Assembly (NCBI GenBank): GCA_020438355.1
Contig: JAGQUT010000020.1
Span: 1-35,858 of the forward strand
Length of the DNA: 35,858 nucleotides
From: Solirubrobacterales bacterium
GTDB taxonomy: Bacteria; Actinomycetota; Thermoleophilia; Solirubrobacterales; 70-9
Reading direction: 5' to 3'
Part shown: in pieces, positions 19,804 through 25,381 of the stretch
Layout: every line of letters begins with the position of its first letter
Position numbering within the stretch: the first letter of the stretch is position 1
Position numbers and translations under genes: made by a program
Notes under the pieces: model-generated
Database searches by the model: none
Seen by the model: only the letters and a program-made list of their open reading frames with translations
Told to the model about the DNA's origin: nothing

Positions 19804-20550
19804 GTGCTCGCCGCGGCCTCAAAGCTCGCTTCGAGGGTCCTTCCCGGCCGCAGCCGACCGCATTCGCACTGGCAGGCGATCAAGAGTGACCGGGCAACTG
19901 CGGCGCTGGCCGTCGGCACTGTCGGTATCGCGGGACTCGTAGTTGCCGCCCAGTACACGCGCCTGCTCAGCCGCCGGACCCACGAGGAGGGGTCAGACAG
20001 GCTGATCGATTCGGCGCCTGCCGCTGCAGTCGACACGGTCGGAGTGGCGGTCGAGGGCTACTCCGCAACCCCGAACCGCGAACTGGTCCTTTTCAACCTG
20101 CTGGGAGGATTCCTCGGCAGCTTCGCCGCGGTCCGCCTGACAACCTGGGCGATCCGGGAGGACTGGGGACCGTTCCGGAACGTCAGCGTCGGCGGCCGGC
20201 ACATCCATCATTTCGTCCCCGGCATCCTGATCGGGTTCGGCTCGGGTATCGCCGGGCTGCTCCTTTCCGGCGAGAACGCGGACCGCCGGATCGCCCGGAC
20301 CCTCGGGGTCGGGATGGGCCTCACTTTCGACGAAGCTGCGTTGCTGCTCGACATGCAGGACGTCTACTGGAGCAGGGAAGGACTCTTCTCGGTCCAGCTC
20401 ACCCTGGCGACTGCGGCGACCCTGGGAATTACCGTTCTCACCCTCAGGATCCTTGGTCGGGGTGAGACCAGGCAGGAAGAGGCGGGGGAGATCCCCGCCG
20501 CCGAGGGACAGATGAACACCGTAGTACCCTGGCCTCACCCGCTGTCATAG
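19804..20550 (+). CDS. Integral membrane protein of unknown function with HIHH motif
   Basis: I do not recognise a named family with confidence. The 248-residue protein begins at GTG 19804, 7 bp after the dehydrogenase stop, so it is probably co-transcribed. It has about five hydrophobic segments (around residues 32-50, 93-112, 138-155, 165-185 and 196-217). A conspicuous stretch SVGGRHIHHFVPGILIG (His133, His135, His136) is followed by GLTFDEAALLLDMQDVYWS (about 172-190), rich in acidic residues near the membrane. The clustered His, Glu and Asp could bind a metal or take part in catalysis within the membrane. Position suggests a link to uronic-acid sugar or polysaccharide metabolism, but nothing in the protein proves this. 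Confidence 0.7.
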   Translation: MLAAASKLASRVLPGRSRPHSHWQAIKSDRATAALAVGTVGIAGLVVAAQYTRLLSRRTHEEGSDRLIDSAPAAAVDTVGVAVEGYSATPNRELVLFNLLGGFLGSFAAVRLTTWAIREDWGPFRNVSVGGRHIHHFVPGILIGFGSGIAGLLLSGENADRRIARTLGVGMGLTFDEAALLLDMQDVYWSREGLFSVQLTLATAATLGITVLTLRILGRGETRQEEAGEIPAAEGQMNTVVPWPHPLS

Positions 20551-20645
20551 ACAGGCGCGTACCGAGATGCAACGTTTCCGGATTTTGTACGGATACATCG
20601 ATACCCAGGGCCGCATTGCCCATTCCCAAGCGGTGTTTAAGGCAT

Positions 20646-20704
20646 AAAAAATGTCGGTGGTCGGGCTGACCCAAGGGAGAGTGGGCCAACCCGACTTCAC
20701 CGAC
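20646..20704 (-). terminator. Intrinsic terminator, minus strand
   Basis: Arms GTCGGTG (20653-20659) with CACCGAC (20698-20704) and GTCGGG (20660-20665) with CCCGAC (20690-20695) form a long GC-rich stem with a two-base bulge. A run of six A on the plus strand (20646-20651) becomes a six-U tract just after the stem on the minus transcript. No U-tract occurs in the plus direction. It would end purA transcripts or a separate small RNA. Confidence 0.85.
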
Positions 20705-20803
20705 TAAGCGCTGCTGAGGGTAGGGAGGGACCCCAGTCAACGATGTCTTGCAGTCATCACGTCCAGTGATCTAACTGCTGATACGACATAGTACACCAAA
20801 CAC
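20646..20803 (-). ncRNA. Candidate structured small RNA downstream of purA
   Basis: A promoter-like pair (20809-20837) followed by the intrinsic terminator would yield an RNA of about 155 nt. Within it, AUGUC and GACAU can close over an inner hairpin built from GCAGU/ACUGC and AUCAC/GUGAU (plus-strand arms 20750-20760 and 20766-20778). It has no open frame of note. It matches no tmRNA, SRP RNA or RNase P signature that I can see. It may instead be an unusually long 3' untranslated region of purA. Expression is not shown by sequence alone. Confidence 0.35.
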
Positions 20804-20808
20804 ACGCG

Positions 20809-20837
20809 TTTATGGTGCACAGCCCGAAAGTGCCCAA
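20809..20837 (-). promoter_or_regulatory. Candidate minus-strand promoter
   Basis: On the minus strand TTGGGC (20832-20837) and CATAAA (20809-20814) are separated by 17 bp, matching the sigma-70-type consensus at 3/6 and 4/6. It overlaps an imperfect inverted repeat (GTACACCAAA at 20791-20800 and TTTATGGTGCAC at 20809-20820). It is a weak match, notable mainly because a terminator lies in the right place downstream. Confidence 0.3.
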
Positions 20838-20851
20838 CCACCCACCACAGA

Positions 20852-20931
20852 GCCCCTCCTAACCATCCAATGATTCGAGTGGGAGGGGCGGGTTATACAG
20901 GGAGGGCCGACGCGGATCGGCCCGACTGCAG

Positions 20932-20933
<2 letters not shown>
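20852..20933 (-). repeat. Structured 3'-UTR element, copy 1 (after purA)
   Basis: Three parts in order on the plus strand: arms GCCCCTCC (20852-20859) and GGAGGGGC (20882-20889); then a perfect 7-bp hairpin GGGCCGA/TCGGCCC with a 6-nt loop (20904-20923); then the 10-bp palindrome GACTGCAGTC (20924-20933), which touches the purA stop codon. A second copy with identical spacing lies after ssb (25300-25381). There is no U-tract, so it is not a classical terminator. Confidence 0.6.
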
Positions 20934-22275
<1,342 letters not shown>

Positions 22276-25272: not shown

Positions 25273-25298
25273 GGCGAGCTTCGCCCCGCCTCAGGCGG
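25273..25298 (-). repeat. Two small hairpins between ssb and rpsR
   Basis: GGCGA/TCGCC with a 3-nt loop (25273-25285) is followed at once by CCGCC/GGCGG with a 3-nt loop (25286-25298). They directly adjoin copy 2 of the structured element and have no counterpart beside copy 1. They may help stop or slow transcription after ssb. Confidence 0.45.
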
Positions 25299-25299
25299 A

Positions 25300-25381
25300 G
25301 CCCCTCCCGACCGTCATTTGCTTCCGACGGGAGGGGCGGGTTTCCTCTGGAGCGCAGGCGAAGACCGGCGCGACTGCAGTC
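25300..25381 (-). repeat. Structured 3'-UTR element, copy 2 (after ssb)
   Basis: The layout is the same as after purA: arms GCCCCTCCCG (25300-25309) and CGGGAGGGGC (25328-25337), a 7-bp hairpin GCGCAGG/CCGGCGC with one mismatch and a 6-nt loop (25352-25371), then GACTGCAGTC (25372-25381), five bases from the ssb TAG. The distance from the large stem to the palindrome is 34 nt in both copies. Stem bases differ between copies while pairing is largely kept. Confidence 0.6.

What the first reader, a model, noticed from the sequence alone, without database searches (positions are those of the whole stretch)
20646..20837. Candidate undescribed small RNA with promoter, nested hairpins and strong terminator
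Seen: a minus-strand TTGGGC/CATAAA pair with a 17-bp spacer, then about 155 bp with AUGUC/GACAU closing over a GCAGU...ACUGC hairpin, then a long GC-rich stem followed by six U. The terminator is more than 220 bp past purA and is unnecessarily far if it serves only that gene. Inferred: an independent structured transcript.
Basis: partly seen in the sequence, partly recalled or inferred. Interest (0 to 1): 0.62.

Follow-up and report, generated by a model that had tools for sequence, protein, structure and literature searches.

The report
Unnamed small RNA beside purA
A short, strongly folded RNA gene next to purA in one group of uncultured actinobacteria is conserved by natural selection, matches no catalogued RNA family, and most likely silences messenger RNAs through C-rich hairpin loops, a way of working already known from unrelated bacteria.

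Summary
The finding is real, but its anatomy needs correcting. On the minus strand between purA and a convergent gene lies a conserved structured RNA, about 137 nt (20782-20646), with three hairpins, the last a terminator. It matches no Rfam family. A covariance model finds it in 15 of 18 genomes of its GTDB genus (Solirubrobacterales); the other three assemblies have no detectable purA. In all 15 it lies just downstream of purA. No convincing relative was found outside the genus. It is 76-98% identical where purA fourfold sites are 44-58% identical, with strong covariation. Best reading: a trans-acting sRNA that pairs through C-rich loops with G-rich mRNA sites, working like sX13 or 6C/B11 without membership of either. 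Transcription and targets are untested; a simple Shine-Dalgarno test found no enrichment in this genome.

The parts
20646..20782 (-). predicted small RNA, about 137 nt (start inferred from the -10, end from the U-tract)
   Evidence: Conserved block in 15 homologues; fold z -6.55; covariation
20788..20793 (-). probable -10 element TACTAT
   Evidence: TAnnnT in 15 of 15 homologues, 5-6 nt from the model start in 14 and 14 nt in the most divergent, L044
20809..20814 (-).
   Evidence: CATAAA in 13 of 15 homologues; exact ATAAAC-N6-GTTTG occurs at only one other place in the genome
   Evidence: loop carries CUCCCUU or UCCCUU in the divergent members L043 and L044
20709..20742 (-). hairpin P2, most conserved; loop CCCUCCCU 20729-20722
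20653..20704 (-). hairpin P3 = terminator stem; loop CUCUCCCU 20681-20674
   Evidence: 14-bp inner stem with both-sided changes at 7 pairs; CUCCCUU in 15 of 15
20646..20651 (-). U-tract, six T
   Evidence: Run of at least 5 T in 10 of 15 homologues, broken or lost in 5
20848..20931 (-). dispersed repeat of about 82 nt between the purA stop and the RNA; not part of the RNA
   Evidence: At least 11 places in this genome's searched or sampled sequence; among the 13 aligned loci only L011 has a comparable stretch besides the window
20932..22263 (-). purA, adenylosuccinate synthetase, upstream neighbour
   Evidence: PF00709, 591 bits
19804..20550 (+). convergent neighbour gene, no Pfam family
   Evidence: homologue on the far side of the RNA in the 13 BLAST loci

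Best explanation
It is a small regulatory RNA with its own promoter, about 137 nt, ending at an intrinsic terminator that doubles as its third hairpin. It presents C-rich loops (CCCUCCCU on hairpin 2, CUCUCCCU on the terminator hairpin; in the two most divergent relatives hairpin 1 carries one too), which pair with G-rich stretches of messenger RNAs, most likely near translation starts, and so repress them. Shown here by computation: conservation, structure with covariation, strand, loop invariance, restriction to one genus and to the purA locus. Inferred: transcription, start site, trans action, pairing, repression. The genome has no recognisable Hfq, so pairing would have to work without it, as reported for sX13.
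For: 15 of 18 same-genus genomes have it by covariance model and the three without it have no detectable purA. Aligned RNA is 76-98% identical in the 12 BLAST relatives where purA fourfold sites are 44-58% identical in 14 relatives. 16 of 38 pairs show changes on both sides against 6.1 +/- 1.4 in shuffles and 1-4 in slid controls (alignment fitted to the model); 10 against 4.8 +/- 1.3 and 0-2 on the unfitted alignment. 62 of 546 paired cells are G-U, so the minus strand is the RNA: the opposite strand pairs 491 of 563 cells. CUCCCUU is in 15 of 15, two or three UCCCU per RNA; chance of UCCCU in one 8-11-nt loop about 1%. Hairpin and loop persist where the U-tract is broken or lost (5 of 15), so the hairpin probably does more than terminate. 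No reading frame of 8 or more codons in 11 of 15. C-rich-loop sRNAs that bind G-rich mRNA sites are documented (PMC3771888 passages; PMC10470900 passages). No Hfq.
Against: No transcript data. Complements of the loops are not typical Shine-Dalgarno sites here: AGGGAG at 1 of 239 starts against 2 in background, while AGGAGA (9 against 0) and AAGGAG (6 against 0) are used (crude start calling, about 15% of the genome). AGGGAGRG-N3-12-ATG occurs 11 times in this genome against 14 for the reversed control, and 202 against 148 over 18 genomes: no clear excess. No target was identified. No consensus -35 was recognised. In L044 hairpin 2 is rebuilt and its loop has no UCCCU.
Confidence: 0.6

Rival explanations
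1. A protein-binding RNA: the repeated UCCCU hairpin loops are docking sites that sequester or guide an RNA-binding protein, rather than pairing with mRNAs.
For: The same short motif recurs in two or three hairpin loops and moves between hairpins in divergent members, as expected of a multivalent decoy; no enrichment of loop complements at start sites in this genome.
Against: No known binder of UCCCU loops was identified or searched for; the documented roles of C-rich loops in bacterial sRNAs are base pairing.
Confidence: 0.2
2. The 3' untranslated region of purA: an elaborate terminator, or an sRNA processed from the purA mRNA, without its own promoter.
For: In all 15 homologues it follows purA in the same orientation; in two the purA stop codon overlaps the CATAAA motif.
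Against: A conserved -10-like element precedes it in 15 of 15; distance from purA varies from -5 to +224 nt with unalignable sequence between; hairpins 1 and 2 are not needed for termination; purA has no such element in 40 of 40 loci checked outside the genus.
Confidence: 0.15
3. A cis-acting element for the convergent neighbour gene, or a bidirectional terminator only.
For: It lies between the two convergent genes in the 13 BLAST loci.
Against: The RNA ends at 20646, about 95 nt short of that gene's 3' end at 20550, so it is not antisense to it; G-U pairs mark the minus strand; in L043 and L044 no homologue of that gene was found in the fetched flank although the RNA is kept; loop sequence is more conserved than a terminator needs.
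Confidence: 0.05

Closest known systems
sX13 sRNA of Xanthomonas (PMC3771888, passages read)
   Same: Three stable stem-loops with C-rich apical loops; sX13 works without Hfq, and this genome has no recognisable Hfq
   Different: Unrelated phylum, different locus (polA locus there, purA here); loops here are UCCCU-type, not runs of 4-5 C; sX13 sequence itself was not compared
6C / B11 RNA of Actinobacteria (RF01066; PMC6582537 and PMC10470900, passages read)
   Same: Actinobacterial sRNA with two C-rich loops; B11 represses an mRNA whose 5' region carries a G-tract
   Different: RF01066 does not match it; model of 75 positions against about 137 nt here; no run of six C; different locus; RF01066 passes its cut-off in 1 of 61 genomes of this lineage, a genome of another genus
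Staphylococcal UCCC-loop sRNAs such as RNAIII (named in PMC3771888)
   Same: UCCC motif in hairpin loops; RNAIII loops interact with ribosome-binding sites
   Different: No sequence relation tested; known here only through that paper's discussion
Pxr sRNA (RF01812)
   Same: Best sub-threshold Rfam match, two hairpins
   Different: 19.3 bits against a cut-off of 80, E 0.42: chance

Membership tests
6C RNA (RF01066) | Scores above the Rfam gathering score | tested here: not met
   No match in the window or in the 15 homologous loci up to E 5
6C RNA (RF01066) | Two hairpins with C-rich loops | tested here: met
   P2 loop CCCUCCCU and P3 loop CUCUCCCU; the classic run of six C (recalled) is absent
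6C RNA (RF01066) | Conserved location near the Ms1 RNA gene (as reported in PMC6582537) | tested here: inconclusive
   Here the locus is purA; no Rfam family reaches its cut-off in the window, but Ms1 was not located in the genome
C-rich-loop trans-acting sRNAs (a functional kind, not a homology family) | Independent transcript | not testable with these tools
   Promoter-like -10 conserved in 15 of 15, no RNA data
C-rich-loop trans-acting sRNAs (a functional kind, not a homology family) | Conserved exposed C-rich loops | tested here: met
   CUCCCUU in 15 of 15
C-rich-loop trans-acting sRNAs (a functional kind, not a homology family) | Pairing with G-rich sites near translation starts | tested here: inconclusive
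   No enrichment in this genome, weak excess over 18 genomes; no target found
purA 3' untranslated region | Fixed continuation of the purA transcript without its own promoter | tested here: inconclusive
   Always downstream of purA, but variable spacing and own -10-like element
Small protein gene | Conserved reading frame | tested here: not met
   No frame of 8 or more codons in 11 of 15 homologues

The most novel reading that the evidence does not exclude
A genus-specific RNA gene born at the purA locus that acts as a multivalent decoy: its UCCCU loops capture a so far unknown RNA-binding protein, or the translation machinery, so that a global regulator that does not pair with mRNAs evolved de novo in a lineage with no recognisable Hfq.
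Probability: 0.15. Interest if true: 0.65.

Novelty: new member of a known kind. Interest (0 to 1): 0.45.

Why it matters
It may be the first small RNA family proposed for this lineage: papers holding both Thermoleophilia and sRNA numbered 0 in the held library, and the single paper with Solirubrobacterales and small RNA is, by its listing, a soil community study. It also adds an apparently independent case of C-rich-loop sRNAs with a traceable origin: the RNA sits between purA and a neighbour gene that nearly abut in some related genera.

Tried and rejected
Rejected: 6C homology; the best 6C-model hit in this genome (32.9 bits, below cut-off) lies just after a long open frame, apparently a thiolase by recall, and looks like its terminator. 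Rejected: the BLAST hit in G006 (E 2e-4) has no purA beside it and reads as coding sequence by eye. Rejected: the G040 model hit (E 0.0018, model positions 95-130 only) as a lone terminator-like hairpin, not inspected further, and a second, weak hit in G010 (E 0.035), not inspected. Rejected: a small protein. Rejected: a phage origin; the core pattern has 0 matches in viral contigs.

Led nowhere: an operator regulon. ATAAAC-N6-GTTTG with up to one mismatch has 8 sites against 5 for the reversed control, 2 of them exact, and the other exact site shows no similar RNA behind it by eye. AAAC-N6-GTTT is seen, by eye, in 9 of the 13 sequences printed there. Targets: loop complements are not enriched at start codons in this genome; the window has loop-complement 7- and 8-mers at a few places, none followed up.

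Limits: genome searches with over 40 genomes score only the best 8-63 first-look candidates each, so weak relatives can be missed. Of 42 out-of-genus purA loci found, 40 were fetched (G041 and G048 left out) and scanned unfiltered (two matches at E 0.42 and 0.69, 10-12 bits, chance). Alignment A3 is fitted to the model; A2 is not.

Full report
What is there. The window is contig C46 of a 2.62-Mb draft genome. On the minus strand purA (20932-22263, PF00709) is followed by the element, and a plus-strand gene without a Pfam family (19804-20550) converges on it.

Checking the observation. The stretch folds much better than shuffles (z -5.4; z -6.6 for the corrected 137-nt RNA; 0 of 200 shuffles as stable in both). 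Rfam has nothing above its cut-offs in the window, two chance-level matches in the region at E up to 10, and two in the 15 homologous loci at E up to 5 (0.96 and 4.9), neither covering the RNA.

Distribution. BLASTN finds it in 12 of 17 other genomes of the genus (E 6e-24 or better) and in none of 43 outside it (best outside E 0.02 over 21 bases). A covariance model (R1) adds G005 and G016, making 15 of 18 with the window's own. G006, G007 and G011 lack it, and no purA was found in those assemblies either, so every same-genus genome with a detected purA has it. In the 13 BLAST loci it lies between homologues of purA and of the convergent gene; in L043 and L044 purA is beside it, and the other gene was not found in the fetched flank. 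Model R2 finds the 15 genus members among 232 genomes of the order, plus one partial match at E 0.0018, and only genus members (11) among 399 sampled from the class. Of 42 out-of-genus purA loci, 40 were fetched; an unfiltered scan gives nothing better than E 0.42. In some of them purA and the convergent gene nearly touch. The RNA thus looks like an addition at this locus in the genus.

Selection and structure. In the 12 BLAST relatives the aligned RNA is 76-98% identical, whereas purA fourfold sites are 43.8-58.4% identical in 14 relatives. On the unfitted alignment of 13, 10 of 38 pairs have changes on both sides (shuffles 4.8, slid controls 0-2), though further pair types are not unusual (101 of 500 shuffles reach them). 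On the fitted alignment of 15 it is 16 of 38 (shuffles 6.1, slid 1-4). Most covariation is in the terminator stem; hairpin 2 hardly varies, so its pairing rests on invariance and on the changed hairpin 2 of L043 and L044. 62 G-U cells pair on the minus strand and would not on the other (546 against 491 of 563 cells), which sets the strand; folding energy favours the minus strand in 13 of 15, with L018 and L044 the exceptions.

Corrected anatomy. The AUGUC/GACAU helix pairs fully in 2 of 14. No -35 consensus was recognised. The distance from the purA stop to CATAAA is -5 to +224 nt in 13. The window's long gap is mostly a dispersed repeat.

Loops. CUCCCUU is in 15 of 15 RNAs, in the terminator loop. 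Hairpin 2 has CCUCCCUA in all 13 main members, UUCCCUACC in L043, and no UCCCU in L044, whose hairpin 1 instead shows UAUCCCUUA; L043's hairpin 1 has UCUCCCUUU. The U-tract has at least 5 T in 10 of 15, and is interrupted or lost in 5 that keep stem and loop. A terminator alone would not be expected to evolve so.

Mechanism. The pattern (several hairpins, C-rich loops more constrained than stems, own -10, no reading frame) is that of sRNAs such as sX13 and 6C/B11, where loops pair with G-rich mRNA sites (passages of PMC3771888; PMC6582537; PMC10470900; the main 6C paper, Mai et al. 2019, is not held, and was seen only as a reference entry). No Hfq was found, and sX13 is reported to act without it. 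Against a generic anti-Shine-Dalgarno role: AGGGAG occurs at 1 of 239 crude starts against 2 in background, and AGGGAGRG before ATG is 11 against 14 in this genome and 202 against 148 over the 18. Pairing with particular G-rich sites remains possible; none was identified.

Novelty. Searches of the held papers gave no description of an sRNA from these bacteria or of this RNA, judging from the listings only. It is a new RNA family with respect to Rfam 15, of a kind whose way of working is known.

Noticed in passing
window 20848-20931 and 25298-25379 (-); also C48, C59, C56, C45, C38, C100 of the same genome: A dispersed repeat of about 82 nt with two hairpins (CTGCAGTCG...GCC, then AACCCGCCCCTCCC...GGGAGGGGCTC), at least 11 places in searched or sampled sequence, several apparently directly after a stop codon in sense orientation (verified only for purA). 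Its GGGAGGG is complementary to the RNA's hairpin 2 loop, perhaps by chance.
   Followed up: partly
window about 20517-20566 (-): Motif GTAC-N5-TGTYYAT, in two copies about 30 nt apart, over the 3' end of the convergent gene, also seen in several relatives; meaning unknown.
   Followed up: no
L154 (G022:C194:534-608): A 6C RNA above cut-off (75.1 bits) in one same-family genome only, 1 of 61; could be a contaminating contig or a transferred gene.
   Followed up: no
window 20797-20813 (-): Dyad AAAC-N6-GTTT just upstream of the -10, by eye in 9 of the 13 homologues printed, possibly a regulator site.
   Followed up: partly
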